Source: Skermanella pratensis
Lineage (GTDB): Bacteria > Pseudomonadota > Alphaproteobacteria > Azospirillales > Azospirillaceae
Length of the DNA: 64,000 nucleotides
Assembly (NCBI RefSeq): GCF_008843145.1
Contig: NZ_CP030265.1
Span: 5,387,001-5,451,000 of the forward strand
Direction: 5' to 3'
A model generated the notes under the pieces. That model made no database searches, had not been told where the DNA came from, and saw nothing but the letters and a program-made list of their open reading frames with translations. Made by a program: the position numbers and the translations under genes. Of this stretch, positions 24,202-43,218 are shown one piece after another. Numbering within the stretch: position 1 is the first letter of the stretch; each line of letters starts with the position of its first letter.

Positions 24202-24246
24202 GAGGGGGTTTGGCCACAGATGAACGCAGATGGACACAGATGGGCG

Positions 24247-24627
24247 CTACGCGCCCTGTAGAATGATGCGTTGATACTGGATGCGGGGCTTGCCGAAATT
24301 TATGAGCAGGGCGATGGGTATTTTGCCTGCCTTCAGGTAATTGAGGGTTTGGGCGATATGGGCGGGCGACAGGGTTTCGGTACATTTCAGCTCGATGAGC
24401 ATCCTGTCATCCACCATGATGTCCGCGAAGTAGCGGCCTACCTCGTCTCCTTTATAAAATACTGGGAAAGGCACTTCCTCACGCGCTGGAATATCCCGGC
24501 GGGTCAGTTCGGCGACCAGTGCCCGCCGGTAGACCACTTCCAGGAATCCATGGCCGAGTACGTTGGAAACTTCGAAAGCCGCTCCGAGCACGGCATGTGA
24601 CAGACGATCCCGCTCCTCATTACCCAT
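24247..24627 (-). CDS. GxxExxY protein (PDDEXK_3-like)
   Basis: 126 residues, the full usual length. The name motif is present as GHGFLEVVYRRAL. A nuclease-like core Asp...Glu-x-Lys follows in GRYFADIMVDDRMLIELKCTE, matching the D-(E/Q)xK pattern of the PD-(D/E)XK fold. The C terminus NYLKAGKIPIALLINFGKPR is typical. The family is widespread, occurs in variable copy number, and its role is not established; nuclease activity is a prediction from the fold. The start ATG lies inside a CAGATGGG repeat unit, and the group II intron ends just upstream. Longer reading through the intron end would add 16 residues of intron-derived sequence and is rejected. Confidence 0.85.
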   Translation of the reverse strand: MGNEERDRLSHAVLGAAFEVSNVLGHGFLEVVYRRALVAELTRRDIPAREEVPFPVFYKGDEVGRYFADIMVDDRMLIELKCTETLSPAHIAQTLNYLKAGKIPIALLINFGKPRIQYQRIILQGA

Positions 24628-24655
24628 CTGAGCCCAATCGCGGTAGGGACGCCCG

Positions 24656-26179
24656 TTACCGGGCGCCCCCCGCACAGAACCGGACGTGCCCGATTAAGGC
24701 ATCCGGCTCCCACCTTGGGTGTTTGACGCGGAAGCGGTTTCCGGGCCAGGGATGAATGATGCGCGGCCGTGGCAGCCAGTGATCGGCAAGGCGCGTGAGT
24801 TTGTCCCACGGTGTCTTGTCCTTCTGGCTGCGCCGACGCAGCGCCCTCATCCACAGGACGCCGACATGGTAGCGCAGGTTGGCAAGGGCCCGGTAGTTGG
24901 TCGGGACGGCGAAGTAGGCGTAGAAGCCGCTCATCACCTGTCCCAGCCACCGGCCTTGCTCCGGGATGCCCTGGTGCCAGCGCCGCCGGAGTTCCTCCTT
25001 GATTTCCTTGAGCTTGGCCTGCTTGCGCTGGCGCCGGGTCTGGCGTCGCAGCAGGAAGCCGCCACGCCGGGACCGCCCACAGATGTGGGTGAAGCCCAGG
25101 AAGTCGAAGGTCTCCGGTTTTCCCGCGCCGCGCTTGGCCCGGTCGGCCTGTGCCTGCCGGCCGAACTCGATCAGGCGGGTCTTGTCGGCGTTCAGTTCCA
25201 GGGCGAACCGCGCCAGGCGCTCCCGCAAGTCCGCGAGGAACCGCTCGGCGTCCGACCGGTGCTCGAACCCGACGACGGTGTCGTCGGCGTAGCGCACCAC
25301 GACCATGGTCCCGGTCGCGTGGCGCTGGCGCCACTGCCGGACCCACAGGTCGTAGACGTAGTGGAGATAGACGTTGGCCAGCAGTGGCGATGCCACCGCC
25401 CCTTGCGGGCTGCCGGCCGTCGCCGGCTGCCGTTTCCCCGTCTCGTCCACCACGCCGACCGTCAGCCACTTGCGGATCAGCCGCAGGACGCGGGCATCGC
25501 CGATCCGGTGTTCCAGGAACCGCATCATCCAGGTGTGGTCGATGCTGTCGAAGAACGCCCGGATATCGGCATCCAGGATCCAGTTCACCCGGCACTCGCC
25601 GATCGCCACCGCCAACGCGTCGAGCGCGTCGTGCTGCCCCCGTCCCGGCCGGAAGCCGTAGGAGAAGCCGAGGAAGTCTTCCTCGTAGATGGCGTTCAGC
25701 ACCTCCACCAGCGCCCGCTGGACGATCTTGTCCTCCAGCGCCGCGATCCCGAGCGGCCGCATCCGGCCGTCCGGCTTGGGGATGACATGCCGGCGTGACG
25801 GGTGCGCCCGGTAGCGGCCGGAATGCACGCGGTCCTTCAGGTCCGCCAGCCGTTCCTCCAGCCCCTCCGCGTACTCCCGCCACGTCATTCCGTCCACACC
25901 CGGTGCCGCGTCCCGCTTCAATGCCCGATAGGCAAAGCGCAGCAGGTCGGTATCCACGTGCGTCAGAAGGGTGGTGAACCGCTCCTCCTTTCGCTCCCGT
26001 GCCGCTTGACGTATGCGCTCCAGCCCCGAGAGCACGGGGGCCCGGTCCTGAGCCCGGCCCGTGTGCGGCGGAGACGCATTCCCCTCGGCCCCACCCCTTC
26101 CCTCCACCGGCTCCGCGTCCGCGTTCGCCGGCTTCACAGGTACTATGGATGGGTCTGACCTCTTCGGCGCGTGCGTCAC
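24656..26179 (-). CDS. ltrA: group II intron reverse transcriptase/maturase (copy A)
   Basis: 507 residues from a GTG preceded by GAGGAG. The reverse transcriptase domain spans about residues 60-340 with the catalytic YADD at 297-300 (VVRYADDTVVG), HVIPKPDGRMRPLGI, and GSPQGAVASPLLANVYL. A maturase/X domain follows (about 345-490; FDFLGFTHICGRSRRGGF). No HNH endonuclease zinc motif is seen, so it is an En-minus type that would rely on nicked or replicating DNA for priming. The last 18 residues are encoded by domain V and VI sequence, as in related introns. Identical in protein to the copy at 49619-51142. Confidence 0.93.
   Translation of the reverse strand: MTHAPKRSDPSIVPVKPANADAEPVEGRGGAEGNASPPHTGRAQDRAPVLSGLERIRQAARERKEERFTTLLTHVDTDLLRFAYRALKRDAAPGVDGMTWREYAEGLEERLADLKDRVHSGRYRAHPSRRHVIPKPDGRMRPLGIAALEDKIVQRALVEVLNAIYEEDFLGFSYGFRPGRGQHDALDALAVAIGECRVNWILDADIRAFFDSIDHTWMMRFLEHRIGDARVLRLIRKWLTVGVVDETGKRQPATAGSPQGAVASPLLANVYLHYVYDLWVRQWRQRHATGTMVVVRYADDTVVGFEHRSDAERFLADLRERLARFALELNADKTRLIEFGRQAQADRAKRGAGKPETFDFLGFTHICGRSRRGGFLLRRQTRRQRKQAKLKEIKEELRRRWHQGIPEQGRWLGQVMSGFYAYFAVPTNYRALANLRYHVGVLWMRALRRRSQKDKTPWDKLTRLADHWLPRPRIIHPWPGNRFRVKHPRWEPDALIGHVRFCAGGAR
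24677..24709 (-). ncRNA. group II intron domain V (copy A)
   Basis: 33 bases reading GAGCCGGATGCC ... GGCACGTCCGGTTC on the minus strand. It forms the characteristic stem with the GAGCCG...CGGTTC closing helix, the catalytic core of group II ribozymes. It lies inside the 3' end of the maturase reading frame. Confidence 0.8.
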
Positions 26180-26567
26180 CGGCTACGGCTCCTCGCCTTC
26201 CCGGTGCGGACCAGACGGCCATCGGCCCCTGGTCACGCCGAAGATCTCCCGGTTCCCGCGCAAGGAGCGTCCGCACATGCCAGGGTCTCTGACCACGCCG
26301 GACCGCCGGGGTGCTCGCATGACGCGCCCCGCCGTATCGCCTTCCAGGCACAGAACCCTGTCGGCATCCGGGATCGAGATTCTTACGCGGCTCAATGGCT
26401 GGCCTATGCGCTCCCCTGTCAACGCTTCGCCGGCGGCCTCGCGACCGCCGCCGCATGACTCGGGGCCGGTGTGGGTCGCTACTCCTTCACCGTACAGGAC
26501 TTTCACCCGCTACTCCTTGCCGGTCTCCCGGCGCTCTCTGCGTGCATCTGTGGCTAAACAACGAAAA

Positions 26568-27134
26568 TCAGTCCGACCGCATCGCGCAGACAGCCAGATA
26601 CGGCCGGAAATGGTCCAGACCCGGCGTCGGCAGCCCCGGGACCTTGGCCTTGTCGTCCCAGCGGCGCACCAGCACCGCGTCGGGACCGAAGCGGCCCAGG
26701 ATGAAGCGGGCCGCTTGGTCCTCGCTCAGGGGTCCCCCCTGGAGCCTCAGGCTCTGCTTCGAGGCGGGCGACAGGGCGGCGGCGTAGGCCGGCTCGACCG
26801 CGCACAGGTAGCGCTTGGCCGCGACGTGCAGCCGCACCGGCGCGCAGACGTCCTCGGGGAAGCGGTCCGCCAGCCATCGCGCGCCGATCGCCTCGTGCCG
26901 GGCGTCCAGCTCCTCGTCGGCGACCCCGTCGCCCAGCCCGTGGAGCAGGTGGCCGATATCGTGCAGCAGCGAGGCGACGACCAGATGGGGCGGGGCGCCG
27001 AACTGCTCGGCCAGTGCCGCGGTCTGGAGCGCGTGCTCGGTCTGGCTGACCGCCTCGCCGAAATAGGCTTGGTCGCCGGAGGCCCGGAAAAGCTCGAAAA
27101 TCTCGGATACGGAGTCGGTCATGGCCTCGATCAC
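26568..27134 (-). CDS. phnZ: PhnZ-like HD-domain oxygenase associated with phosphonate degradation
   Basis: 188 residues. The HD fold is seen in EHALQTAALAEQFG and VASLLHDIGHLLH, with RHEAIGARWL later. The YFGE segment (about residues 23-26) just before the first His corresponds to the Tyr and Glu that mark PhnZ-type mixed-valent di-iron oxygenases, which cleave the C-P bond of hydroxylated 2-aminoethylphosphonate. Start is a GTG overlapping the PhnX stop; an ATG four codons in is an alternative. Coupled to the upstream phosphonoacetaldehyde hydrolase. No PhnY hydroxylase is in the window, so whether it acts on that substrate is inference. The group II intron lies 14 bases beyond its stop. 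Confidence 0.78.
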   Translation of the reverse strand: MIEAMTDSVSEIFELFRASGDQAYFGEAVSQTEHALQTAALAEQFGAPPHLVVASLLHDIGHLLHGLGDGVADEELDARHEAIGARWLADRFPEDVCAPVRLHVAAKRYLCAVEPAYAAALSPASKQSLRLQGGPLSEDQAARFILGRFGPDAVLVRRWDDKAKVPGLPTPGLDHFRPYLAVCAMRSD

Positions 27135-27976
27135 GGAACAGCCCCCAGGGCGAGGCGGCGCTCGATGTCCTCGATCACGGGTATCAGCTGTCCGATCCCG
27201 TCGATCACATAATGGGCGCCGCCCGCGCGCAACCGATCATACGCGGCGGTCCGCCTGACCTTCAACTCGTCTTCCGACAGCGCCGTCAATTCCTCGACCG
27301 CCAGCCCCATCTCGTTGCCGGTCAGGGCTACCGCGACGGTCCACATGCCGGCATGGAGGCCCTCCTCGATTCCGGGAAGGGTGTCGTCCACCTTGACGCA
27401 GGCGGCGGCCGGCCAGACGTTCAGCTCGACCATGTTCTGGTAGCACATCAGCGGGGTCGGCCGCCCGGCGGCCAGGTCGCCGGCGCAGACCACGCAGTCC
27501 GGCTCGTAGCCGTTGGCGGCGGCCGCCGGGATCAGCACGTCCATGATCGGCCGGGAATAGCCGGTGGTCGAGCCGATCTTCACGCCGCGGGCGCGCAGGT
27601 CGGCGATGGTGGTGCGGGCGCCCGGCACCAGCGCCGCGTGGTCGGCGACCACCTCGACGTTCATGGGCAGGAAGCGGGCGTAGAGGTCGTCCACGTCGCC
27701 GTCGGACATGGGCCGGCCATGGATGTCCCGCCAGCGCTTCGCCACCTCGGGCAGCGCGCCGATTGCCTTGATATGGTCCCACTTGGGCAGCCCCATGGGC
27801 ACGCGCGCCTCCGCGGCCGAGATCGTGACGCCGACCGTGCCGAACGCCGCCACGAACACCCCCATCGGCGCCCGGCTGCCGAAATCCACCACGGTGCCGG
27901 CCCAGTCCAGGATGACCGCGCGGACCGGTCCGTCGTAGGATTTGGCAAAGGGATTGGCGAAGGGATTGGTCGTCAT
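27131..27976 (-). CDS. phnX: phosphonoacetaldehyde hydrolase
   Basis: 281 residues. HAD-superfamily enzyme that hydrolyses phosphonoacetaldehyde to acetaldehyde and phosphate. The nucleophile aspartate lies in AVILDWAGTVVDFG (about residue 24). The Schiff-base lysine lies in MGLPKWDHIKAIG, the diagnostic feature of PhnX. Later segments GSTTGYSRPIMD and VCAGDLAAGRPTPLM complete the HAD motifs. Start chosen at the ATG with GGAG upstream; a longer frame to 28153 has no coding features. Translationally coupled to the PhnZ-like gene. The usual transaminase PhnW is not in this window. Confidence 0.93.
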   Translation of the reverse strand: MTTNPFANPFAKSYDGPVRAVILDWAGTVVDFGSRAPMGVFVAAFGTVGVTISAAEARVPMGLPKWDHIKAIGALPEVAKRWRDIHGRPMSDGDVDDLYARFLPMNVEVVADHAALVPGARTTIADLRARGVKIGSTTGYSRPIMDVLIPAAAANGYEPDCVVCAGDLAAGRPTPLMCYQNMVELNVWPAAACVKVDDTLPGIEEGLHAGMWTVAVALTGNEMGLAVEELTALSEDELKVRRTAAYDRLRAGGAHYVIDGIGQLIPVIEDIERRLALGAVP

Positions 27977-28201
27977 GCCGTCGTATCTCCTTGGCCCCGG
28001 CCGCCACCTTGGCCGGAGCGCCGGGCATCTTGGGCGCCGCACTTTGCGCCAGGGGTCGGCGAAAGAAAAGCGGCTAAATCGATGCGAAAACAAGGTCGAG
28101 ATTTCGTCCCGCATCATGAAACCGTAACGCAAAGCCGTGAGGTTTGGCTCCAACGGCCATGACCATTTGGATAGGGCCTATCAGCCGGGGAGTTCCGGAC
28201 C

Positions 28202-28372
28202 ATGGCCATCTTCAAGCCACGACCAGATCTTTTCCGCGCCGCGACCACCGGTGCCGCCGACACGACGCTGGCCTCGGCCGCCGTGAAGCTCCTCCACGCC
28301 CTGGCCACCGGCCGCCTTCTCCGCCTCAACCCAGCGCTGGCGGGCGAGGTGAGTTCTTCCGGCCACGGATGA
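28202..28372 (+). CDS. possible small protein, 56 residues
   Basis: An ATG with GGGGAG seven to eight bases upstream opens a 56-codon frame ending TGA. The product begins MAIFKPRPDLFRAATTG and continues with an Ala/Leu-rich amphipathic stretch (LASAAVKLLHALATGRLLRL). No family recognised. It stands alone between the divergent phnX and outer-membrane barrel genes. The good ribosome site and even composition support it; length and isolation argue against. Confidence 0.4.
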   Translation: MAIFKPRPDLFRAATTGAADTTLASAAVKLLHALATGRLLRLNPALAGEVSSSGHG

Positions 28373-28630
28373 ACGGCGATCATCAAAGATAAATCGAAAT
28401 CACCTTTTCTTGTCCGCGCGGATCTGTAGCCAATGTTATTCGAAGCTCCCCATGCCTGATGTGTCCCAAGCATCGTCAACGGAAGCCATAAGTTTCGTTT
28501 CCTGCCATCAGAGAACCTGCAGAAATCCAGGATCTATTCTGGAACTGCTTGCCCGAAAAATTTTGATTCTTGAAATCCTGAAATTCAAAGACAACTGGCA
28601 GGCCGTACCGTAGTATTGGAATTCGGAATC

Positions 28631-29311
28631 ATGATCAAAACGGCTCTCTTTGCTTCTGCTGCTGCTATTGCCATGTCCTCATTCGCGGCAAGCGGCCATG
28701 CGCAGACGAATCCACAGACGCCCCAGGCAAACCAGAATTACTTCGAAGCTGACCCCGGATTCTATATCCGAGGCAGTCTCGGCTATTCCTGGTCAGCAAA
28801 CGACGACATCGATTACTCGCCCCTTTGGGGCCTTGGCGTCGGCTACCGTTTCGATCCGAACTTCCGGGCGGACATCACGGTGGATTGGCGCGACCGCTAC
28901 GTCGTCGAGGGGAGCAGCTTCAGCAGCTTCGACTCCGGGGTCGACAACCGCAGCTTCATGCTCAACGCCTATTACGACTTCGACCAGATCCCGGTCGTCC
29001 AGCTGCCGGGCGGCTTCAAGCCCTATGTGGGCGCCGGCGTCGGCTTCAGCCGGACCAGCGTCAACGACCAGATCATTCCCGGTGCTGGCGGCACCGTCGC
29101 CAGCATAAGCGGCTCGGACCGGACCCGGTTCGCCTGGCAGGGCATGGCCGGCGTGGGCTACCAGATGACCCAGGAGTTCGCCGTAGACCTGGGCTACCGC
29201 TATGCCCAGCTCGGCAAGGTGAGGGCAAGCTCGACGACGGCGGCGACCGGCTCGATCGACGAGGATCTGAACGTCCACGAACTCGTTCTCACCGCGCGCT
29301 ACGGCTTCTAG
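28631..29311 (+). CDS. outer-membrane beta-barrel protein (Omp25/OmpW-like porin family)
   Basis: 226 residues with a signal peptide (FASAAAIAMSSFAASGHAQ). The mature part consists of alternating amphipathic strands: GFYIRGSLGYSW, LWGLGVGYRFDPNFRADITVDWR, FKPYVGAGVGFSRT, WQGMAGVGYQMTQEFAVDLGYRYAQLG. It closes with HELVLTARYGF, whose terminal Phe is the classic outer-membrane assembly signal. This is the layout of an eight-stranded surface-antigen/Omp25-type barrel. Start chosen at the ATG that begins the signal; one five codons upstream is possible. A single-gene unit, preceded by an AT-rich promoter region. Confidence 0.88.
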   Translation: MIKTALFASAAAIAMSSFAASGHAQTNPQTPQANQNYFEADPGFYIRGSLGYSWSANDDIDYSPLWGLGVGYRFDPNFRADITVDWRDRYVVEGSSFSSFDSGVDNRSFMLNAYYDFDQIPVVQLPGGFKPYVGAGVGFSRTSVNDQIIPGAGGTVASISGSDRTRFAWQGMAGVGYQMTQEFAVDLGYRYAQLGKVRASSTTAATGSIDEDLNVHELVLTARYGF

Positions 29312-29479
29312 GGTGGTGTCCGATCAGGTTGAACCGCTCCGGTCCACGCGGCCTGCCGTTCCACTCGCCGCGTTGCGTTGGGCTGTCCCGGCCCGATCAG
29401 CCTGGCCGGGCACTTCTCTAACGGAAACGGGCAGGGCGTTGACCGGCGCGCCCCGCCCGGATCCCCGGCCTCGCCGTGC

Positions 29480-31369
29480 TCAGATACCCTCGCCGCGGCC
29501 TTGGACCGCGTCGCTGGGGTATTTCAGCCCGGTGACCCGCTCGGCATAGCCGACCAGCTCGCCCACAGCCTCCTCGATGCCCAGCCGTCCCGTCTCGACC
29601 ACCAGCTCGGCGGCCTGCGGCTCCTCGTAGGGGGCGGAGACGCCGGTGAATTCCGGGATCTCGCCGGCCCGCGCCTTGCGGTACAGTCCCTTGGGATCGC
29701 GCTGCTCGCAGGTGTCCAGGTCGGCCTTGACGTGGATCTCGTGGAACAGGTCGCCGCCGATCGCCCGGGCGCGCGCCCGGTCCTGCCGGGTGGGCGAGAT
29801 CAGCGCCGTCACCACGATCATGCCGGCCTCGGCGAACAGCCGGGCGGCCTCGGCGACCCTGCGGATATTCTCCGACCGGTCGGCGGGCGAGAACCCCAGG
29901 TCGCCGTTCAGCCCCTGCCGCACGCCGTCGCCGTCCAGGACGTAGACCTGCCGGCCGCGCTCGAACAGCGTCCGTTCCAGTCCCATGGCCAGCGTCGACT
30001 TGCCGGCCCCGGACAGGCCGGTCAGCCACAGCACGGCGCCCCGGTGGCCGTTGGACAGCGCCCGCTCGTCCGGGCTCACCGCATGCTCGACCCGCTGGAG
30101 GTTCCGCTCGGCGACCGCGTCGGCCCCCGTCACGATGAACCCGCCGACCACGTCGTGGCCGTCCAGAAGCACCCCGCGGCCGGTGCGGGGCAGGTCGATT
30201 GCCAGGTCCACCGCCACCAGGCTCCGGCTGTGCAGCACCACGTTGGCGATCTCGTTGCGGCCGACCCGGTCGGCGGCCGCCACGCCCAGGTCGTCGATGT
30301 CCACCACCTCGACGATCTTCTCCACCGTCACGCGGTGCTCGGCGGTCGCCAGCTTGAGCGTATAGGCCCGGCCGGTCTCCAGCGGCTTGGAGGCCAGCCA
30401 GAACAGCCGCACGGTCAGCCGGTGGGCCTCGACCGGCCGCTCCGCCGGAAGGCTGGCGATGTGGCCGCGCTCGACGAAGATGCGCTGGTCCAGCGTGATC
30501 CCGACCGACTGGCCCGCCGCGGCGCTGATCGCGGGCGCCGCGTTCCACGCCTCGATGCCGACGACCTTGGCGGTGCGGTTGTTCGGCGCGAAATGCAGGG
30601 TGTCGCCGACCCGCAGCCGGCCGGTCTCGATCCGGCCCGCCAGGATGCGGCGCTCGTCCGGCTTGTAGACGTCCTGGATCGGCAGGCGCAGCGGCAGCTC
30701 GTCCTCCGGCGCCGCCGGCAGGAAGCCGTCCAGCGCCTCGATCACGGTCGGCCCGTCATACCAGGCCAGGTTCCCGCTGCGCGACGCGATGTTGTCGCCG
30801 TGGCGGGCGGAGACCGGCAGGATCACGCCCGGCGCCACGCCGATCCCGTTCAGGTAGGCCCGGATCTCGGCCGCGACATGGTCGAACCGCGCCTGCGAGA
30901 AATCCACCATGTCCATCTTGTTGACGATCACGGCGACCTGTTTCACCCCCAGCAGGTGCAGCAGGTAGGCGTGGCGGCGCGACTGCTCCAGGGCGCCCTC
31001 GCCGGCGTCGATCACCAGCAGGGCCGCGTCGGCGCTGGACGCGCCGGTCACCATGTTCTTCAGGAACTCGGTGTGGCCCGGCGCGTCGATGATCACGTAG
31101 GGACGGCGTTCCGTCTTGAAATGGATCTGCGTCGTGTCGATGGTGATGCCCTGGTCGCGCTCGGCCTGGAGCGCGTCCATCACGAACGACCACTCGAACG
31201 GCATGCCGCGCCGGCGGCTCATCTCGCGGACCGCCTCGACCTTGCCGTCGGGCAGGCTGCCGGTGTCGTTCAGCAGCCTGCCGATCAGGGTGGACTTGCC
31301 ATGGTCGACGTGGCCGACGATGACGATGCGCGCCTGGCGGCGCTGGGATGCGGGAATCAAGGGGCTCAT
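29480..31369 (-). CDS. cysN: bifunctional sulfate adenylyltransferase GTPase subunit / APS kinase (CysNC)
   Basis: 629 residues. The N-terminal GTPase (about 1-430) has GHVDHGKST at about 19-27, DAPGHTEFL and NKMDMVD; it drives ATP sulfurylase activity with CysD. The C-terminal APS kinase (about 440-629) has its P-loop GLSGAGKST near residue 450 and the conserved [15 protein letters not shown], giving PAPS. This NodQ-type fusion is common in alphaproteobacteria. Start is the ATG two bases after the CysD stop; a longer frame runs back into cysD. Last gene of cysH-cysD-cysNC. Convergent with the outer-membrane barrel gene. Confidence 0.94.
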
Positions 31370-31370
31370 C

Positions 31371-32165
31371 TCACATGTAACCGGAACTGCGCAGGCGCTC
31401 GAAGGCGTCCTCGGTTTCATTGTCCATCGACCGGCCGGCCCGCTCGGGCGTGCGGGTCACTTCCAGCTCGGAGATGATCTCGTCGATGCTCGCGGCGCTG
31501 CTGTCCACCGGGAAGGTGATGTTCTTCTCGCCCAGCGACCGGTACCGCTTGCCCTCGCGGGCGAAGTACAGCGGCACGATGGGGATCTCCTCGCGCTTGG
31601 AATAGCGCCAGATGTCCAGCTCGGTCCAGTGCAGCAGCGGGTGGATGCGCACATGGGTGCCCTCGGCGAACCGGGTCTTGTAGTGGTCCCAGAACTCCGC
31701 CGGCTGGTCCTTGAAGTCCCAGGCGCCGTCCAGCGCGCGCGGGCTGAACACCCGCTCCTTGGCGCGGGTCGCCTGCTCGTCGCGGCGGATGCCGACCATG
31801 ATGCCCTGGTACTGCTCGCGGCGGAGCAGGTTCTTCAGCCCCTCGGTCTTGCGGGCGGCGGCGCGGGTGGCCGGCGGCAGCGTCGGGTCCATCTCGCTTT
31901 CCGGCGGGCACTGCTCGATCACCAGGTCCAGGCCCCAGTCGCGCGTGACCATGTCGCGGAACTCGTAGACCTCCGGCAGTTCCATGCCGGTGTCGAGCTG
32001 CACCACGGGGAACGGCACCTTGCCGAAGAAGGCCTTGCGCGCCAGCCACAGCAGCACGTTGCTGTCCTTGCCGATCGACCACAGCGCGGCGAGGCGGTCG
32101 ATCCGGTTGAACGCCTCGCGCAGGATATAGACGCTCTGGCTTTCCAGTTGGTCGAGGTCGGTCAT
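31371..32165 (-). CDS. cysD: sulfate adenylyltransferase subunit 2
   Basis: 264 residues. PP-loop ATP pyrophosphatase family member that adenylates sulfate to APS together with the CysN GTPase. Key segments are [33 protein letters not shown] and [19 protein letters not shown], and it closes with [11 protein letters not shown], typical for CysD. Start is the ATG at 32165, whose product begins [18 protein letters not shown]. It lies 50 bases downstream of cysH and two bases upstream of cysNC. Confidence 0.95.
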
Positions 32166-32215
32166 CGTCCGAAGTTCCACCACAATCAAAATGGCCCGCT
32201 GGGTAACGGGCGGTG

Positions 32216-32968
32216 TCAGATGAAGGATACGTTGCGCGGCACGGCGCCCAGGTGGATGCCGCATTCCGTCTTGTTCAGCCCGGCCCAGCGGCCGGAGCGC
32301 GGGTCCTGGCCGGGAGCGACCCGGTCGGTGCAGGGCATGCAGCCGATCGACAGGAAGCCGTCGGCCTCCAGCGGGTGGCGCGGCAGGTCGCGGCGGTCGA
32401 ACTCCGCCTGGATCATGTCGCGGGACCAGGTCGCCAGCGGGTTGACCTTGAAGCGGCCGTCGTCGTCCCGCTCGACCGCGTCCAGGGCCGCGCGGGTAGT
32501 CGCCTGGAAGCGCTTGCGGCCGGTGATCCAGGCGTCGAAGCCGCGCAGCGCGCGGTCCAGCGGGATCGTCTTGCGGACGTGGCAGCAGGCGTCCGGCGAC
32601 GACTGCCACAGCAGCCCTTCCGGGTCCGCCGCCTTCAGCTCGGCCGGGTCGGGCTCGATCGTGCGGACGTCGGTCAGGCCGAGCCGCTTGATCAGCGTGT
32701 CGCGGTAGCGCAGGGTCTCGCCGAACAGCTTGCCGGTGTCCAGGAAGATCACGGGGATACCCGGATCCACCTCGGCCGCCAGGGCCAGCAGCACGGCGGC
32801 TTCCGTCCCGAAGGAGGAGACCAGGGCGATCCGCCCGCGGAATTCGTCCCGCACGAGCGGCCGAAGCAGTTCGGCCCCGGACAGGCCACCATAGCGCAGC
32901 TGGAGCGCATCGAGCCCGTCCGCCAAATGTGTTCTCGCCAGTCCGTCCATGTCCGAAACACAATCCAC
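32216..32968 (-). CDS. cysH: assimilatory APS reductase (CysH, 4Fe-4S type)
   Basis: 250 residues. Reduces adenylyl sulfate to sulfite in the cytoplasm. The cysteine pairs CCHVRK and GCMPCTDR mark the [4Fe-4S]-binding APS reductase class rather than the cluster-free PAPS reductase. The catalytic cysteine lies in KTECGIHLG near the C terminus. The PP-loop opening is IALVSSFGTEAAVLL. Start is the first ATG; one six codons in is possible. Heads the cysH-cysD-cysNC operon and is divergent from cysI across about 200 AT-rich bases that should hold the shared sulfur-responsive promoters. Confidence 0.93.
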   Translation of the reverse strand: MDCVSDMDGLARTHLADGLDALQLRYGGLSGAELLRPLVRDEFRGRIALVSSFGTEAAVLLALAAEVDPGIPVIFLDTGKLFGETLRYRDTLIKRLGLTDVRTIEPDPAELKAADPEGLLWQSSPDACCHVRKTIPLDRALRGFDAWITGRKRFQATTRAALDAVERDDDGRFKVNPLATWSRDMIQAEFDRRDLPRHPLEADGFLSIGCMPCTDRVAPGQDPRSGRWAGLNKTECGIHLGAVPRNVSFI

Positions 32969-33164
32969 AAAATGTTGATGTATTTACTCTAGCTATTGCA
33001 CGTTAGCGAGTCTGGAGAAAGCCCGCAACGCTTTTAACATGCGGCATTGAGTCATTCAGCATATCTACACGGAAATTCTGTGTTGAATTGGAAAATTTAT
33101 GCACCTTATATGCTCGCACGGCCCCGATACCGCCCCTCATGCATGGATTAAAGCGTCAGTCGCC

Positions 33165-34925
33165 ATGTCACAGTCCCAAGACCTCCCCGCGAAGAAGCCC
33201 GCCCCGACCCCGAAGCTTTCGCAGGTCGAAGGCGTCAAGCAGGCGAGCGCGCTGCTGCGCGGCAGCATCGCTGAGACGTTGAACAGCGACCTCGTGAAAT
33301 TCACCGAGGACGAATATAACCTGCTGAAATTCCACGGGACCTATCAGGGATACGACCGCGACTCCGCGACCGAGCTGAAGCAGGCCAAGGCGGAGAAGAA
33401 GTGGGAGTTCATGGTCCGCGCCCGCATCCCTGCCGGCCGCCTGACCTCCCGGCAGTACCTGGACCTGGACGCCCTTGCCGATCGCCGCGCCAACCATACG
33501 ATCCGGATCACGACCCGGCAGGCGATCCAGTTCCACGGCGTCGTCAAGTCCGACCTCAAGGGCACGATCGCCGACATCAACGCCACCATGATCACCACGC
33601 TGGGCGCGTGCGGCGACGTGGTCCGCAACGTCACGGCCATGCCCGCTCCCGTGCGCAGCCCGGTCACCGAGCGTCTGGCGGCGGATGCCAAGCGCATATC
33701 CGACCATCTGCTGCCGCATACCCGGGCCTACCACGAGATCTGGCTGGACGGCGAGCAGTTGCTGGGCGAGCCCGAGATCGAGCCGATCTACGGCACGACA
33801 TACCTGCCCCGGAAGTTCAAGATCGGCCTCGGCGTGCCGGAGGACAATTCGGTCGACGTGCTGACCAACGACCTCGGCATCGTGGCATTGTACGAGGGCG
33901 ACACCCTGGTCGGGTACAATTTCGCGGTCGGCGGCGGCCTGGGCATGACCCACAACAAGCCGAAGACCTATCCGAGGCTCGCCAGCTTCGTCGCCTTCGT
34001 CGAGCCCGACGACCTGATCAAGGCTGTCGAGGCCGTGGTCATCGTCCAGCGCGACCATGGCGACCGAACCAACCGCCGCCACGCCCGCCTGAAATACACC
34101 ATCGACGAGCGCGGCCTGCCCTGGTTCAAGTCGGAGATGGAGCGCGTCCTGGGCCGCGCCCTGGAAGATCCGCGCCCGATGCCGCCGTTCCAGGTCGCCG
34201 ACCATCTCGGCTGGCACGAGCAGGGCGACGGGCTGTGGTACCTGGGCCTCGCGATCCCCAGCGGCCGCATCCAGGACACCGACCCGGTCAAGCTGCGCAC
34301 GGCGCTGCGCGAGGTCGCGGCCCGGTTCGAGCCAGCATTGGTGCTGATGCCGACCCAGGACCTGATCCTGGCCGACATCCGGGACGAGGACCGCGCCGGC
34401 ATCGAGGAGACGCTGCGCGCCCACGGCGTCCGGTTCGCCGAGGAGTTGCTGCCGGTCCACCGCTGGTCGCTGGCCTGCCCGGCGCTGCCGACCTGCGGCC
34501 TGGCGCTGACCGAGGCGGAGCGGATCCGCACCCCGATGATCGACCGCATCGCCGAGGTCATGGCCCGCTACGGCCTCGCCCAGGAACGGCTGAGCATCCG
34601 CATCACCGGCTGCCCCAACGGCTGCGCCCGGCCCTATGCCGGCGACATCGGGCTGGTCGGCCGCATGCCCGGCCATTTCTCGCTCTATGTCGGCGGTGAT
34701 TTCGAGTGCACCCGGTTGAATTGGAAGCTGCTCGACCGTGTTCCCGAGGACGACGTGCCGGAGACCCTGGCCCCGCTGTTCGCCGAGTTCGCGGCCCAGC
34801 GCGACCAGGGGGAAGGCTTCGGCGACTTCCTGAACCGCCTCGGCCTGGAGCGGGCGACCGCCCTGGTCAAGCCCGACGCCGCCGCCGCCGAGGGCAATGC
34901 TGGCGACCTGGTGGAGGCCGACTAG
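33165..34925 (+). CDS. cysI: assimilatory sulfite reductase hemoprotein
   Basis: 586 residues. Six-electron reduction of sulfite to sulfide using siroheme and a [4Fe-4S] cluster. Cluster and siroheme ligands appear as CPALPTC and CPNGC (C-x5-C and C-x3-C). Siroheme-contacting segments are RITTRQAIQFHGV and HGDRTNRRHARLKYTID. Start chosen at the ATG opening MSQSQDLPAKK; an upstream ATG adds 22 atypical residues. Its TAG overlaps the GTG of the siroheme synthase gene by one base, so enzyme and cofactor synthesis are coupled. Confidence 0.95.
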   Translation: MSQSQDLPAKKPAPTPKLSQVEGVKQASALLRGSIAETLNSDLVKFTEDEYNLLKFHGTYQGYDRDSATELKQAKAEKKWEFMVRARIPAGRLTSRQYLDLDALADRRANHTIRITTRQAIQFHGVVKSDLKGTIADINATMITTLGACGDVVRNVTAMPAPVRSPVTERLAADAKRISDHLLPHTRAYHEIWLDGEQLLGEPEIEPIYGTTYLPRKFKIGLGVPEDNSVDVLTNDLGIVALYEGDTLVGYNFAVGGGLGMTHNKPKTYPRLASFVAFVEPDDLIKAVEAVVIVQRDHGDRTNRRHARLKYTIDERGLPWFKSEMERVLGRALEDPRPMPPFQVADHLGWHEQGDGLWYLGLAIPSGRIQDTDPVKLRTALREVAARFEPALVLMPTQDLILADIRDEDRAGIEETLRAHGVRFAEELLPVHRWSLACPALPTCGLALTEAERIRTPMIDRIAEVMARYGLAQERLSIRITGCPNGCARPYAGDIGLVGRMPGHFSLYVGGDFECTRLNWKLLDRVPEDDVPETLAPLFAEFAAQRDQGEGFGDFLNRLGLERATALVKPDAAAAEGNAGDLVEAD

Positions 34926-35485
34926 TGTTTCCCATCGTCCTGGACCTGGATCACGTCTCGGTCGCTCTGGTCGGCACCGGGCAACTGGCGGCCAAGCGGC
35001 TGCAGCAGCTGGACCAGGCCGGGGCGAGGCGGCTGACCGTCTTCTCCGAAGCGCCCGACGCGCCCCTGGCGGCGCTGGCCGGCGAGCGGCTGATTCGCCG
35101 CCTGCCGACCGACGGCGACCTGGCCGCCTTCCAGGTGATCTACATCGTCGACCTCGATCCCGGCGCCGCGGCCGACCTGGCCGCGCGCTGCCGGGCGCTC
35201 GGCCGCCTGGTCAATGTGGAGGACGTCAAGCACCTGTGCGACTTCCACACGCCGTCCCAGGTCCGCCGCGGCGACCTGCTGCTCTCCATCTCGACCGGCG
35301 GCAAGAGCCCCGGCCTGGCGCAGCGCCTCCGCCGCTACCTGGAAGACCTGTTCCAGCCGGACTGGGAAGACCATCTGGACGAGCTGGCCCGCGCCCGAGC
35401 CCACTGGCGGGCGGAGGGCGCCGACATGCGGACGGTGGCCCGGCGCACCGAGGAAATGATCGAGAAGCGGGGCTGGCTGCGCTGA
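34925..35485 (+). CDS. siroheme synthase: precorrin-2 dehydrogenase / sirohydrochlorin ferrochelatase domain
   Basis: 186 residues, equivalent to the N-terminal part of CysG or Met8. The NAD-binding segment is VALVGTGQLAAKRLQQLDQAGA. The conserved LVNVEDVKHLCDFHTPSQVRRGDLLLSISTGGKSPGLA region carries the catalytic Asp equivalent and product-site residues. Lacks the methyltransferase half, which must be encoded elsewhere. GTG start overlaps the cysI stop. Its product siroheme is the cofactor of CysI, explaining the linkage. Confidence 0.9.
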   Translation: MFPIVLDLDHVSVALVGTGQLAAKRLQQLDQAGARRLTVFSEAPDAPLAALAGERLIRRLPTDGDLAAFQVIYIVDLDPGAAADLAARCRALGRLVNVEDVKHLCDFHTPSQVRRGDLLLSISTGGKSPGLAQRLRRYLEDLFQPDWEDHLDELARARAHWRAEGADMRTVARRTEEMIEKRGWLR

Positions 35486-35606
35486 GCGGCCTGTTGAGTC
35501 GGGCACCGGAGCGAATCACCTGAAGGTTGTTTCGGTAGCCCTATCGTTTTAGACTGCCCCGGCGATCCGATCACGGTCAACACGGCCCGGGCAGAGAACA
35601 ACGATC

Positions 35607-35906
35607 ATGTATGCCCATCCCCAGCACGGCGGCGGCACTCGAATGAAGGACCTGCGGAAGGCGGGCGGCGCCTGGCTGAAGCAGTGCCGGCTGCACCGGG
35701 GCCTGACGCAGCTGCAGGTCGCCGAGGCCGTGGGGCTGGAGAACTACACCATGATTTCGATGATCGAGTCGGGCCGGGGCAGGATACCCCCTGAATCCTA
35801 CCGGGCCTGGGCCGCGGTCATGGGCTTGACGCCGCAGGAATTCGTCCGGGAGATCATGAAGCATTACGATCCCGTGACGTACGAGATCCTGTTCCATCCC
35901 GACTGA
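35607..35906 (+). CDS. XRE-family helix-turn-helix protein
   Basis: 99 residues. The HTH lies at about residues 33-60 (LTQLQVAEAVGLENYTMISMIESGRGRIP), with a C-terminal tail VREIMKHYDPVTYEILF. A paralog at 41527-41853 shares the spacing and the ending YYDPVTHKALF, so the longer start at 35607 is kept; an ATG at 35643 is the alternative. DNA-binding regulator of unknown target. The two paralogs bracket the DUF4214/RTX block, suggesting a role in its control (inference). Confidence 0.85.
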   Translation: MYAHPQHGGGTRMKDLRKAGGAWLKQCRLHRGLTQLQVAEAVGLENYTMISMIESGRGRIPPESYRAWAAVMGLTPQEFVREIMKHYDPVTYEILFHPD

Positions 35907-36167
35907 GCCGGCCGAAGCCGGCGCTGCCATGATTCCTGCGGATTCGATATCGGCCGGAGCCCGTGTGCTCCCGCGCGCCGAACAGCGCGACGTGGCACAT
36001 GGCGATCCTTCGGTCTCCTCACCCTGAAAAGTTCTCGAAATCCACAGGAAACATCGAACCGCCTTTTTTTGGCAGACATCCTCGGCGAAGAAAGCAAATC
36101 AGGCACCCGGTACCAATACGATGCTGATCGCATTCAGTATCGGGCCAATCAATGCTCCAGCCCCTGT

Positions 36168-36241
36168 AGGTCGGGTATAGCGGAGCGGCACCCGACAAGC
36201 AGTCGCGCCGATGCCGGGTGCCGCTCCGCTATACCCGACCT
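36168..36241. repeat. REP-like palindrome, 27-bp perfect arms
   Basis: Arms 36168-36194 (AGGTCGGGTATAGCGGAGCG...) and 36215-36241 are exact complements around a 20-base loop. GGTCGGGT...ACCCGACC termini are typical of dispersed extragenic palindromes. No coding capacity; forms a very stable hairpin in either transcript. Confidence 0.85.
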
Positions 36242-36940
36242 GCGATCGAAAGCGCATTGCTCATTGATCTACCTGAAGCTTTGTCTTTTGAACGCATCTC
36301 TGTACATGTTCAGTCTTACTCCTTGCTTGCCCATTCCCAAAGCACCGAAGAATTTTACAGCGGACAACCCGCGAAGAAACATTGTTTCCTTAGGAATTTC
36401 TGACACAGAAACATCTCGAATGCAGTCAAAAGGTGAGGAACATCTTTATGTTCGTTAACTAGTTGTGGTTCTGGAGCCACATATAAGCGACTTGCTGACA
36501 AGAATTTCACTTTGGGGCTTGAGCATCCTTACCTACTCCGATATGGTTTCCTCACATACGGGTTAACCTGTTAGGTCGGAAGAGCAAAAGAGACCTGATT
36601 GGGACACCTCGATGAAGGAAACCCGCCCAAGACTTCTCCATCGCCGATCAGGAAACCACGGAGGTCAAATCGCAAACCAGAGTGCTTGTGATGCATAGTG
36701 CGGATATGACTTTTATAATAACGTGTATTACTTAAGTTAAACAATAAACATCAAATCCGCTCCAATCATCGTAAACAAAAAATTAGTAAATCGTCGATAG
36801 AACAGCATTCAATTCATGGTCAAACGACAGCGTTGTACCTGAGGAACTGAAGTCACACACCTTCACTGTAAATCAAATACCCCTCTTTCAAAGGTCGCAG
36901 TGCTCTAATCCGACCGAAACGCCTCGATCCGCGCGAATAT

Positions 36941-37113
36941 CAAAGGCGACGATCCGTGCGCCGCCTTCGATATCCGTACGGTAAAACCAAAAACCTTACG
37001 GATCGCTGCCTCTCCCGTACTGAAGTGACGGGTGCGGGGGAGTGGAGATTGGGGACCCGCCCTTGGGTCTTCCTGCTAGAGCATTACCCAGCCTGTCTCT
37101 AAGAGGCGAAATC
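36941..37113 (+). repeat. duplicated leader, copy 1
   Basis: Similar along its length to 37635-37812. Shared blocks are CCGCCTTCGA-ATCCG, GCTGCCTC-CCC / CCTGCCTCCCC, GGGTG-GGGGGAGTGGAGAT and CTGTCTCTAAGAGGC just before the GTG start. It supplies the TAAGAGG ribosome site of the first DUF4214 gene and probably its promoter. Confidence 0.75.
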
Positions 37114-37752
37114 GTGGCAACACTCGACGAAACCAAGACCAGCATCAACACGTGCTACGAGACTATTCTCCAGCGCATCCACTCCGACATCGAAGTCAAC
37201 AGCTGGACTACGCCGGTTAACTCGGGAGCTCTGACGCTCGATCGGGTCCGTGAGAGCTTTAACAACTCGCTAGAGGCTCAGAACGTCAACAGCGTGATCC
37301 GTCTGTATCAGGCGGCCTTCGGTCGCGTTCCGGACGTCAACTCCGGCCTGTCGATGGAGCGGATCGCCGACGGTTTCGTCAACTCTCGGGAGTTCATGGA
37401 CCGCTACGGCAGCAAGGATGTCACCCAGGCGTTCGTAACCTCGGCGTACTTCCAGGTTCTGGGGCGCGTCCCGGATGCGGGTGGCCTGGCGCACTGGACG
37501 ACCTCCGGCCTGAACGCCGCCAAGCGCAGCGAGGACTGCAGCGGCAACCTGTTCGAGTACGGCCCGCAGCCCCAGTCGCAGCCCGTCGGCCAGACCTTCA
37601 CACTCACTGACGGTGCGTTCCCTCGTGCGGATCTCCAAGGCGGCTATGCCGACACCGCCTTCGACATCCGCGCGGCGAAACTGACCCCCGCCTGGATGAT
37701 CCCTGCCTCCCCCGCATCGATGTCGACCGCGGGTGTGGGGGAGTGGAGATGA
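37114..37752 (+). CDS. truncated DUF4214 protein (tandem-duplicate head)
   Basis: 212 residues from a GTG with TAAGAGG upstream. Residues 1-165 match the start of the next gene's product: TCYETILQRIHSDIEVNSW / FFYEHILQRIPSAAEVASW, VIRLYQAAFGRVPD, FVTSAYFQVLGRVPDAGGLAHW, PVGQTFTLT. About 30 residues are missing in the middle. The last 45 or so residues (DGAFPRADLQGG to GVGEWR) are not protein-like: they are the second leader copy read through in frame. DUF4214 domains occur in type I-secreted surface proteins; without the C-terminal signal this form would not be secreted by that route. Likely a by-product of duplication, possibly still translated. Confidence 0.75.
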   Translation: MATLDETKTSINTCYETILQRIHSDIEVNSWTTPVNSGALTLDRVRESFNNSLEAQNVNSVIRLYQAAFGRVPDVNSGLSMERIADGFVNSREFMDRYGSKDVTQAFVTSAYFQVLGRVPDAGGLAHWTTSGLNAAKRSEDCSGNLFEYGPQPQSQPVGQTFTLTDGAFPRADLQGGYADTAFDIRAAKLTPAWMIPASPASMSTAGVGEWR

Positions 37753-37812
37753 AGACCCTCCCCGGGTCCTTCCGGTAAAGCTTTACCAAAACTGTCTCTA
37801 AGAGGCTCAATC
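37635..37812 (+). repeat. duplicated leader, copy 2
   Basis: Second copy of the 36941-37113 leader. It serves as coding sequence for the tail of the first DUF4214 gene, then as promoter/ribosome-site region (TCTAAGAGG before GTG 37813) of the large gene. Gap and base differences are scattered, so the duplication is not recent. Confidence 0.75.
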
Positions 37813-40803: not shown

Positions 40804-40816
40804 TCTGATCATCGGG

Positions 40817-40850
40817 AAGGGCGCTGTGAAAGAACAATTGCAGCGCCCTT
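40817..40850 (+). terminator. hairpin after the large DUF4214 gene
   Basis: Perfect 10-bp stem AAGGGCGCTG / CAGCGCCCTT with a 14-base loop, 13 bases after the stop. Followed by TTCAG, a poor T-run; probably a 3' stabiliser or first half of a tandem terminator with the hairpin at 40866. Confidence 0.6.
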
Positions 40851-40865
40851 TCAGATCCGGAACTG

Positions 40866-40895
40866 AAAGGGCCTCGTGAAGACGGGGCCCTTTTT
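40866..40895 (+). terminator. intrinsic terminator
   Basis: AAAGGGCC ... GGGCCCTTTTT stem with TTTTTC following: a standard Rho-independent terminator. It lies only 15 bases before the ATG of the oxygenase gene, so that gene is either read by leak-through or from a promoter inside this short gap. Confidence 0.8.
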
Positions 40896-40909
40896 CACGA
40901 AGGCCAATC

Positions 40910-41491
40910 ATGCAAGTCGTGCACAAGGATCTCTTTCCGACACGTCTCTGGATATTCAATCTGGAGGAGCTGTTGCCGCGGTTCGATGCTTGGCAGGAGC
41001 AAATCCTCGCATGGCGGCATGCTGATCCTGTTCCGGCAGGTCGTTCCAACCGCAAGGGATGGAATAGCCAGAAGTCACTTTTCTCCGAAAGCGCGTTTGC
41101 GTCGCTCAAGGAGGCCGCGAGCGCAGGCTTCAGCCATGCCTTCCGAGACATGCAACTCTCCTCGGACGTACGGTTCCGTCTGGAAGCATGGGTTAACCTT
41201 CATGATCCCGGAGGATTCAACACTCTACATGCGCATCCCGGGGTCCTGCTGTGCGGATGCTTTTACCTTCAAGTGCCGGAAGGTGCCGGCCCGATAGTCT
41301 TCCGGGACCCCCGCCCAGGTGTGGTGCTCACACCTTTCAATGGGAAGGGGATTCATTGCGGTGGTGATGTGTCGGTACGTCCGGGGCCAAGTCAACTGAT
41401 CGTGTTTCCGAACTGGCTTGAGCATCGGGTGGAGCCGAACGATGGGGCGGAACCCAGGATTTCCATAGCCATGAATGCGCTTGCAGCCTGA
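40910..41491 (+). CDS. 2OG-Fe(II) oxygenase-like protein (TIGR02466-type)
   Basis: 193 residues. Double-stranded beta-helix oxygenase signature: NTLHAHPGVLLCGCFYLQVPEGAGPIVFRDPR gives the H-x-H/first iron ligand region. FPNWLEHRVEPNDG gives the distal His, and RISIAMN gives the 2-oxoglutarate-binding Arg. The N terminus LFPTRLWIFNLEEL is typical of this family. Predicted to use Fe(II) and 2-oxoglutarate to hydroxylate a substrate. The position right after the RTX protein suggests that protein, or a component of its export, could be modified (inference). Confidence 0.8.
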   Translation: MQVVHKDLFPTRLWIFNLEELLPRFDAWQEQILAWRHADPVPAGRSNRKGWNSQKSLFSESAFASLKEAASAGFSHAFRDMQLSSDVRFRLEAWVNLHDPGGFNTLHAHPGVLLCGCFYLQVPEGAGPIVFRDPRPGVVLTPFNGKGIHCGGDVSVRPGPSQLIVFPNWLEHRVEPNDGAEPRISIAMNALAA

Positions 41492-41526
41492 CCTTCCTCA
41501 ATTCCTCTGAGAGTAAGCCCTTTGCC

Positions 41527-41853
41527 ATGGTTCCTCCTCCTCAACCGAACGTGGCCCATGACGCGGGCGACCTCCGCAAGGAGGCTGGCCTCTGGATCAA
41601 GTCGCTCCGCAGGGCAGCGGGTCTCTCACAGCGCCAACTCGCCCAGGCAGCGGGGGTCTACTACTACACGACCATCGCGCAGATCGAGGCGGGCAAGCTG
41701 CGTATCCAGCCGGACCGCTACGAAGCCTTCGCCCAGGCGCTGGGCGTCGCCGATACCCAAGCCTTCGTCAAGCAGCTCATGAGCTACTACGACCCGGTCA
41801 CCCACAAGGCTCTGTTCGGCGACGAGCGGGGCGACGAGAAGGTCGAGGACTGA
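41527..41853 (+). CDS. XRE-family helix-turn-helix protein (paralog of 35607-35906)
   Basis: 108 residues. HTH at about residues 36-64 (LSQRQLAQAAGVYYYTTIAQIEAGKLRIQ). Shares with the earlier paralog the DLRKEAG..IKSLRRAAGLSQ opening, the A.ALGV spacing and the C-terminal YYDPVTHKALFG motif. Located 35 bases after the oxygenase gene. Ends with an acidic tail (DERGDEKVED). Probably a local transcription regulator; target not evident. Confidence 0.85.
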   Translation: MVPPPQPNVAHDAGDLRKEAGLWIKSLRRAAGLSQRQLAQAAGVYYYTTIAQIEAGKLRIQPDRYEAFAQALGVADTQAFVKQLMSYYDPVTHKALFGDERGDEKVED

Positions 41854-41888
41854 CCCGCCCCGCAGCAAGGGACCATCGAACCGACCCC

Positions 41889-42848: not shown

Positions 42849-42885
42849 TCCGACGACCCCCTCCCTCCCCACGACGGGTTGACCG

Positions 42886-43218
42886 ATGCCCCTTCCACTC
42901 CTGATCGCCGCGTGGTGCGCCTTCGCCCTGGCCGTCACGGCCGGCTGCCTCGTGCCGGCCGACCGGCTGCCCGCCCGCCTGCCGAACGACAAGCTGCTTC
43001 ACCTGCTGTCCTATGCGGCGCTGGGGCTGCCGGTCGCGGCTCTGGCGTCCACTTCCGGGCAGGCCGCCGCCGGCGTGGCGGCCCTGCTGCTCGCCGGCCT
43101 GGCGATCGAGGTCGCCCAGCACTTCGTTCCCGGCCGCTCCTTCTGCGTCCGCGACCTGGCCGCCAACGCGGCGGGGGTGCTGATCGGCACGCTGGCCGGC
43201 TTGCCCGTGACGCTCTGA
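42886..43218 (+). CDS. VanZ-like membrane protein
   Basis: 110 residues, three to four membrane segments. VanZ-family pattern DKLLHLLSYAALGL ... IEVAQHFVPGRSFCVRDLAANAAGVLIG is clear. Small inner-membrane protein; in other bacteria VanZ homologs affect envelope/antibiotic phenotypes, but the biochemical role is unknown. The stop is followed in the same frame by a DUF4214 remnant. Confidence 0.8.
   Translation: MPLPLLIAAWCAFALAVTAGCLVPADRLPARLPNDKLLHLLSYAALGLPVAALASTSGQAAAGVAALLLAGLAIEVAQHFVPGRSFCVRDLAANAAGVLIGTLAGLPVTL

What the first reader, a model, noticed from the sequence alone, without database searches (positions are those of the whole stretch)
24210..26557. GxxExxY gene and group II intron enclosed by inverted CACAGATG repeats
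Both ends carry GGCCACAGATG-type arms in inverted orientation, and the GxxExxY start codon itself lies in a CAGATGGG unit. Cassette B at 49241-51219 has the same arms and intron but no GxxExxY gene. This suggests that the repeat pair is a unit that exists with or without the gene: either a GxxExxY-encoding mobile cassette or a dispersed repeat family associated with that orphan nuclease-like family. The repeat geometry is seen directly; mobility and nuclease action are inferred. The GxxExxY family has no established function, so a defined element boundary would be new information.
Basis: partly seen in the sequence, partly recalled or inferred. Interest (0 to 1): 0.72.

Follow-up and report, generated by a model that had tools for sequence, protein, structure and literature searches.

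The report
Nuclease gene nested inside dispersed hairpin repeats
A small DNA-cutting enzyme family of unknown function (GxxExxY) mostly sits between the two arms of a hairpin-forming repeat whose gene-free copies are scattered around the same genomes, in many bacterial phyla, which suggests that the enzyme acts on, and may spread, these repeats.

Summary
The GxxExxY gene lies in the loop of a palindrome whose arms are iterated CACAGATG units. The group II intron is a later insertion into one arm; cassettes A and B are halves exchanged by a 22.7-kb inversion ending at the two identical introns. Gene-free copies (about 60-125 bp) are dispersed in this genome. Of 151 scored loci from many phyla, 125 GxxExxY genes have inverted iterated arms; displaced windows give 1 of 283. 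Arm units follow protein type: GAT units with GxGF proteins (34 of 38), none with GxGL (0 of 84). In 82 related genomes dispersed repeats track the gene with the same arm, not Y1 (RAYT-type) transposases. The gene stays put: 79 of 79 protein pairs at 70% identity or more share both flanks. The predicted fold is a minimal Cas4/RecB-like PD-(D/E)XK nuclease with an intact active site. Best reading: organised like REPIN/RAYT, a stationary nuclease with a cognate population of hairpins, but with an unrelated enzyme. That the nuclease drives dispersal is inferred. 'Mobile GxxExxY cassette' is not supported; 'dispersed repeat family tied to GxxExxY' is.

The parts
24212..24244 (+). Left arm of the GxxExxY element: iterated units CACAGATGAA CGCAGATGGA CACAGATGGG, on the 3' side of the gene
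   Evidence: sequence; same arm at the orthologous site in G079 and a shorter one in G080
24247..24627 (-). GxxExxY gene, 126 aa, PD-(D/E)XK nuclease; the start codon lies in the other arm, the stop codon 2 bp from the left arm
   Evidence: TIGR04256 1.2e-38, PF13366 6.9e-37, active-site residues conserved, AlphaFold model of the 117-residue domain pLDDT 96.1
24623..24636 (-). Gene-proximal part of the second arm (TGGGCTCAGATGGG on the minus strand), the 3' exon of the intron
   Evidence: G079 has the uninterrupted arm CCACAGATGCACGCAGATGGGCTCAGATGGG
24637..26536 (-). Group II intron with reverse transcriptase/maturase, inserted in the arm; not part of the element
   Evidence: RF02005, RF00029, TIGR04416; absent at the orthologous site in G079 and G080
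26537..26554 (-). Outer arm of cassette A (CACAGATGCACGCAGA); by synteny it comes from a different, short element and was brought here by the inversion
   Evidence: G000 5413537 onward aligns inverted from G079 5827091 and G080 5393666
26537..49261 (.). 22.7-kb segment inverted relative to G079 and G080; both ends lie at the introns/arms
49243..49261 (+). First arm of cassette B; by synteny the displaced outer arm of the GxxExxY element
   Evidence: G000 5433197-5436261 aligns to G079 5797970-5794906, next to the GxxExxY element there
49262..51161 (+). Second, identical group II intron copy
   Evidence: 100% over 1900 bp
51162..51216 (+). Remainder of the short gene-free palindrome: inner part of one arm, loop, other arm
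   Evidence: sequence; intron-free short palindrome at the orthologous site in G079 and G080

Best explanation
The locus is a GxxExxY 'hairpin-nuclease' element: a palindrome whose arms are iterated units of about 8-12 bp (read by eye; here CACAGATGNA), with a small Cas4/RecB-like PD-(D/E)XK nuclease gene in its loop. The gene copy is stationary and inherited vertically. Gene-free copies of the same palindrome, about 60-125 bp and able to fold into strong hairpins, form a dispersed population in the same genome. I propose that the nuclease recognises the unit sequence of its own arms when they are extruded as a hairpin or cruciform (single-stranded at forks), nicks them, and so lets the short palindromes be excised or copied into new intergenic sites in trans. 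In outline this is what RAYT transposases are thought to do for REPINs, with an unrelated enzyme. Shown: the nesting, the match between protein type and arm unit, the link between gene and cognate repeats across genomes, the conserved active site, the stationary gene, and presence/absence of short copies between species. Inferred: recognition, cleavage and mobilisation.
Against: No insertion event, excision product or target-site duplication was seen. At three of the four sites aligned the short copy is shared by G000 and G080, so movement is slow or old; at the fourth (G000 3947893) G079 and G080 may hold an eroded remnant rather than an empty site. Absence in G078/G081 was not polarised into gain or loss. 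Two repeat-rich genomes lack the gene (G033, G047) and several gene-bearing genomes have few or no matches of their own arm type. 26 of 151 loci scored under 13. The GAT/AG split is a single deep change, so it gives few independent events; finer labels need 5 and 4 changes (no shuffle given for those). In 32 genomes of other lineages 7 have no AAG match and one (G411) has more control matches (6) than real ones (2). No biochemistry exists; PD-(D/E)XK nucleases serve many roles.
Confidence: 0.55

Rival explanations
1. The nuclease is a keeper, not a mover: it cuts or resolves cruciforms formed by these palindromes (as Hjc- or SbcCD-type enzymes would) and so lets the genome tolerate repeats spread by something else; its own gene persists by being embedded in one.
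Confidence: 0.22
2. The repeats are REPINs or similar elements moved by a RAYT (Y1 HUH) transposase, and GxxExxY only hitch-hikes in the loop.
For: The organisation resembles REPtrons and TIRtrons (PMC3733652, section 16 read).
Against: PF01797 has no match in the window's genome and is not associated with the repeats: 8 of 25 repeat-rich genomes against 14 of 57 others, p=0.59, while GxxExxY is (p=1e-9). Caveat: the held G000 is one 5.87-Mb contig and its congeners are 7.8-8.5 Mb, so a plasmid may be missing; outside the family Y1 was not tested.
Confidence: 0.07
3. One reading: the whole arm-GxxExxY-arm unit is a self-mobilising cassette (a small transposon or homing element).
For: Defined boundaries; element length median 479 bp, IQR 463-511 in 125 loci; gene-plus and gene-free forms exist.
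Against: Pairs at >=90, 80-90 and 70-80% protein identity share both flanks in 21/21, 32/32 and 26/26 cases; pairs are not independent (few sites). Only 8 of 72,556 plasmid records match the window's protein (the GxGL type was not searched there).
Confidence: 0.08
4. No functional link: the arms are regulatory hairpins (attenuator/terminator or mRNA stability) that many genes carry, and GxxExxY merely has them too.
For: Strong hairpins in intergenic space, some just after a stop codon (alignments, read by eye).
Against: Displaced windows around the same genes lack arms (1 of 283); unit sequence follows the protein type; repeats follow the gene across genomes.
Confidence: 0.05

Closest known systems
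REPIN / RAYT (REPtron) system and TIRtrons (PMC3116915 abstract, PMC8049555 passages, PMC3733652 section 16 and passages)
   Same: Inverted pairs of short repeats forming hairpins, dispersed in intergenic DNA; a vertically inherited gene flanked by cognate repeats; several families per genome, each with its own gene.
   Different: The enzyme is a PD-(D/E)XK nuclease, not a Y1 HUH transposase; arms are runs of iterated units of about 8-12 bp without a GTAG tag; the gene sits inside the palindrome's loop, here with its start codon in the arm.
GxxExxY protein family (TIGR04256, PF13366 PDDEXK_3)
   Same: The protein is an ordinary member by profile and by motif.
   Different: No function, repeat or element boundary was found for it in the papers searched.
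Cas4 / RecB / lambda-exonuclease branch of PD-(D/E)XK nucleases
   Different: A minimal single domain of about 120 residues; no other gene lies between the arms.
MITEs
   Same: Short non-coding copies with inverted repeats and a longer gene-bearing relative.
   Different: The gene in the longer form is not a DDE transposase; no target-site duplication found.
Mobile elements that target REPs (PMC1525189, one table passage: group II intron in REPs 2 of 9 in P. putida)
   Same: Here too a group II intron uses the dispersed repeat as its landing site.
   Different: 15 or 16 of the 16 copies found in G000 and G079 sit in repeat units (at most 9 candidates per genome were scored).

Membership tests
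REPIN/RAYT (REPtron) | Dispersed inverted repeat pairs that fold into hairpins | tested here: met
   56 matches against control 0, elements listed, DNA-fold z -9 to -15 for 4 of 5 stretches
REPIN/RAYT (REPtron) | Associated Y1 HUH (RAYT) transposase | tested here: not met
   PF01797: 0 matches in G000; no association over 82 genomes
REPIN/RAYT (REPtron) | GTAG tag on the repeat unit | tested here: not met
   The 25-base arms listed hold no GTAG (read by eye)
REPIN/RAYT (REPtron) | Gene vertically inherited rather than jumping | tested here: met
   79 of 79 pairs with >=70% protein identity share both flanks; pairs not independent
REPIN/RAYT (REPtron) | Enzyme duplicates the repeats in trans | not testable with these tools
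   needs an experiment or population sequencing
GxxExxY (TIGR04256) | Profile score over the curated cut-off | tested here: met
   132 bits, cut-off 35
PD-(D/E)XK nuclease, RecB/Cas4-like | Conserved D, ExK and QxxxY residues | tested here: met
   D64 155/155, E74 155/155, K76 153/155, Q88 154/155, Y92 152/155
PD-(D/E)XK nuclease, RecB/Cas4-like | Fold | tested here: met
PD-(D/E)XK nuclease, RecB/Cas4-like | Nuclease activity | not testable with these tools
   no biochemistry
MITE / DNA transposon | Target-site duplication | tested here: inconclusive
   the sites without the element in G078/G081 are too diverged to read a duplication
Mobile GxxExxY cassette / homing element | Closely related gene copies at different sites | tested here: not met
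   0 of 79 pairs at >=70% identity lack shared flanks
Group II intron | Ribozyme domains and intron-encoded reverse transcriptase | tested here: met
   RF02005 175 bits, RF00029 41.7 bits; TIGR04416 345 bits, cut-off 300

The most novel reading that the evidence does not exclude
GxxExxY is the dedicated, sequence-specific nuclease of a bacteria-wide class of dispersed palindromes: a repeat-propagation system built on a minimal Cas4/RecB-like PD-(D/E)XK enzyme instead of a transposase or recombinase. Each protein lineage reads its own short unit and keeps its own intragenomic population of hairpins, which would explain both the unassigned family and a share of the CACNRAG/CACNGAT-type intergenic repeats.
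Probability: 0.4. Interest if true: 0.92.

Novelty: new variant of a known kind. Interest (0 to 1): 0.77.

Why it matters
GxxExxY is a widespread nuclease-like family without a function. Tying it to a defined candidate substrate, its own palindromic repeat, gives a direct bench test. If the nuclease drives the repeats, REPIN-like populations have arisen at least twice with unrelated enzymes, and a Cas4-like nuclease domain would gain a role in moving or maintaining DNA hairpins. It also accounts for a class of intergenic repeats, gives annotators an element boundary (start codons inside repeats), and shows these repeats acting as intron landing sites and inversion points.

Tried and rejected
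Tried and rejected: (1) Intron as part of the unit: rejected, relatives have the element without it. (2) A and B as two instances of one cassette: rejected, they are swapped halves. (3) RAYT as the mover: not supported in this family. (4) Gene-bearing element as mobile: not supported. (5) Plasmid spread: 8 of 72,556 plasmid records match the window's protein, all 8 typed non-mobilizable by PLSDB. (6) Defence-system member: PADLOC 0 families at E<=1; PHROGs none for the window's protein, best 0.0093 for L059. (7) Solved relatives by sequence: none at E<=1.

Weak points: the score threshold of 13 was chosen after seeing scores (seven cut-offs are given). Of 163 loci, 4 with duplicate proteins and 8 at contig edges were dropped before the count. 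The window's own locus scores only 9 because the intron displaces its arm; its intron-free orthologues L122 and L127 score 22 and 20. Arm classes and per-genome totals for searches were entered by hand; 2 matches per gene-bearing genome were subtracted for the cognate class. One search used 50 of the 51 family loci (L050 left out). In one search, 19 of 20 elements were scored (one right arm not found) and two arms fell out of register. The tree rests on 120 columns with many open forks. One search took 32 of the 80 loci. MAG titles were not checked; the archaeal one (L224) may be misbinned. Novelty rests on an open-access library only.

Not done: a structure search against viral proteins (queue full, not repeated); EBS/IBS pairing of the intron; a survey of whether Y1 or other genes have the same arms.

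Full report
WHAT IS THERE. The window carries a GxxExxY gene (24247-24627, minus; TIGR04256 1.2e-38; PF13366 PDDEXK_3). It is enclosed by arms built of iterated ten-base units: CACAGATGAA CGCAGATGGA CACAGATGGG at 24212-24244, and the inverse on the other side. The gene starts inside the second arm and its stop codon lies 2 bp from the first. A 1900-bp group II intron splits the second arm, and an identical copy lies at 49262-51161. CACAGATGNACGCAGA without mismatch occurs at four places in the window; with up to 3 mismatches there are 9 against 1.6 expected. In the whole genome a related pattern gives 56 matches with 1 mismatch allowed, and the reversed control gives none.

THE UNIT. The 56 matches fall in 25 clusters: 8 contain the intron (one of them also the gene), 17 do not. 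In 10 of those 17, matches lie on both strands within a span of 59-124 bp; in several of the others a weaker partner can be seen by eye. Four of five stretches tested fold as DNA hairpins far better than shuffles (z -9 to -15); the fifth ran into an intron and lacked its second arm (z -0.8). In 19 of 20 elements that could be scored, the two arms of one element match each other better than arms of different elements (20.9 against 19.9 of 25 positions, P=2e-4). The genome's second GxxExxY gene (1888715) lies between arms of a different unit, CACGGATG, and that unit too is dispersed (21 matches, control 0). So both GxxExxY genes of this genome sit inside their own repeat family.

THE WINDOW'S HISTORY. 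Two congeners, G079 and G080, carry the same element at the same site as arm-gene-arm, without intron. Relative to both, the segment between the two introns (window 26537-49261) is inverted, with breakpoints at the introns and arms. Cassette A's outer arm therefore belongs to a short gene-free palindrome, and cassette B's first arm to the GxxExxY element. Recombination between the two inverted intron copies is the simplest cause (inferred). The 8 intron copies found in G000, and 7 or 8 of the 8 found in G079, follow a C(A/G)C(A/G)GA unit of CACAGATG or CACGGATG arms; L299 is the weakest. At most 9 candidates per genome were scored. Four copies at about 80% identity in G011 (3) and G078 (1) do not follow such units.

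GENERALITY. I collected GxxExxY loci from the window's family (51 loci), from its phylum and viral contigs (32 loci) and from genome contigs (80 loci): 163 in all, 159 distinct proteins, 151 with enough flank. A local alignment of the upstream region with the reverse complement of the downstream region reaches 13 or more in 125 of 151, in 1 of 283 same-size windows displaced by 900 bp, and in 1 of 151 shuffles; medians 20, 9 and 8. Record titles of the 80 loci name Planctomycetota, Chloroflexi, Cyanobacteria, Acidobacteria, Bacteroidetes, Armatimonadetes, Sumerlaeota, Hydrogenedentota, alpha-, beta- and zetaproteobacteria and others. The element is compact: median 479 bp, IQR 463-511 in the 125. 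In the phylum sample 58 of 299 genomes have the gene, in the family 35 of 82 over the cut-off.

SPECIFICITY. Proteins fall into a GxGF and a GxGL type. Of the 125 loci with arms, 122 could be typed by this motif: GxGF proteins have GAT units in 34 of 38, GxGL in 0 of 84 (62 AAG, 17 GAG, 3 ACG, 2 unclassed) (Fisher 4e-26). On a tree each label needs one change (shuffled means 28.7 and 28.9); within types AAG/GAG needs 5 and CAGAT/CGGAT needs 4 (120 columns only, many forks open). The top split is one deep event, so the finer changes carry the independent weight.

DISPERSED REPEATS FOLLOW THE GENE. In 82 genomes of the family, three repeat types were counted. Genomes whose gene has CAGAT arms have a median of 18 further matches against 0 elsewhere (p=1e-7); AAG 21 against 0 (p=8e-7); CGGATTT mean 3.0 against 0.27, medians both 0 (p=7e-4); the six off-diagonal comparisons give p between 0.065 and 0.79. 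Of 25 genomes with at least 4 matches of any type, 23 have GxxExxY, against 12 of 57 others (p=1e-9). For Y1 transposases (PF01797) it is 8 of 25 against 14 of 57 (p=0.59). G033 and G047 are repeat-rich without the gene. Within the genus, G078 has no GxxExxY match and no CAGATG repeat, and G081 has a GxxExxY gene without detectable arms and no CAGATG repeat. In 32 genomes of other lineages (32 of the 80 loci), 25 have the AAG pattern, 14 with ten or more matches (up to 196), 7 have none; in one the control exceeds the matches.

WHAT MOVES. The gene does not, at this depth: among 50 family loci each of the 79 protein pairs at 70% identity or more (not independent) shares both flanks. Short copies do differ: at three G000 sites (262662, 5732101, 5562912) the short element is present in G000 and G080 and absent in G078 and/or G081. 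At a fourth (3947893) G081 lacks it, and G079 and G080 have what may be an eroded remnant. Gain and loss were not told apart, and no target-site duplication could be read.

MECHANISM. I read this as a stationary nuclease gene with a cognate population of hairpins, like REPIN/RAYT. PMC8049555 (passages) states that RAYTs are single-copy, vertically inherited and duplicate REPINs. PMC3733652 (section 16) describes RAYT genes flanked by repeats or long inverted repeats with repeat-specific families. The enzyme here is unrelated, so this is not a member of that system; it is organised like it. Recognition of the unit, cutting of the hairpin and propagation in trans are inferred. The main rival is a keeper role (cruciform resolution).

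NOVELTY. 'GxxExxY' occurs in 2 papers of the library, both in passing (passages); PF13366/TIGR04256/PDDEXK_3 in one (listing). Repeat strings gave no paper, one on fish eDNA (listing) and four on animals (listing). A search aimed at REPIN/RAYT gave that literature; two broader ones listed 15 of 22 and 15 of 38 papers, none with a title on GxxExxY or such a repeat/nuclease pair. The library is open-access only, so absence there is not proof.

Noticed in passing
window 26537-49261: A 22.7-kb inversion relative to two congeners (G079, G080) ends at two identical, oppositely oriented group II introns.
   Followed up: yes
window 24637-26536 and 49262-51161; L289-L316: This group II intron uses CACAGATG/CACGGATG repeat units as its landing site in G000 (8 of 8 found) and G079 (7 or 8 of 8 found); 80%-identical relatives in G011 and G078 insert elsewhere.
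   Followed up: partly
G000 336512 and 4969964; G079 5338620-5339119 and 412633: In G079 the left flanks of two different G000 repeat elements lie side by side and one right flank lies elsewhere, as if another large rearrangement had its breakpoints at these repeats.
   Followed up: no
L033 and L037 (G000 about 116690 and 413166): Another dispersed repeat of about 130 bp (GCCACAGATTACGG... then CTTCCTCCCGGCC...) lies next to short elements and matches many places in G079 and G080 (query about 1041-1167).
   Followed up: no
L137, L138: Two viral contigs carry GxxExxY genes, also with inverted arms (scores 13 and 24); prophage or host contamination was not separated.
   Followed up: no
G047, G033: Repeat-rich genomes with no GxxExxY match: possible loss of the gene with orphaned repeats, or an assembly gap.
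   Followed up: no
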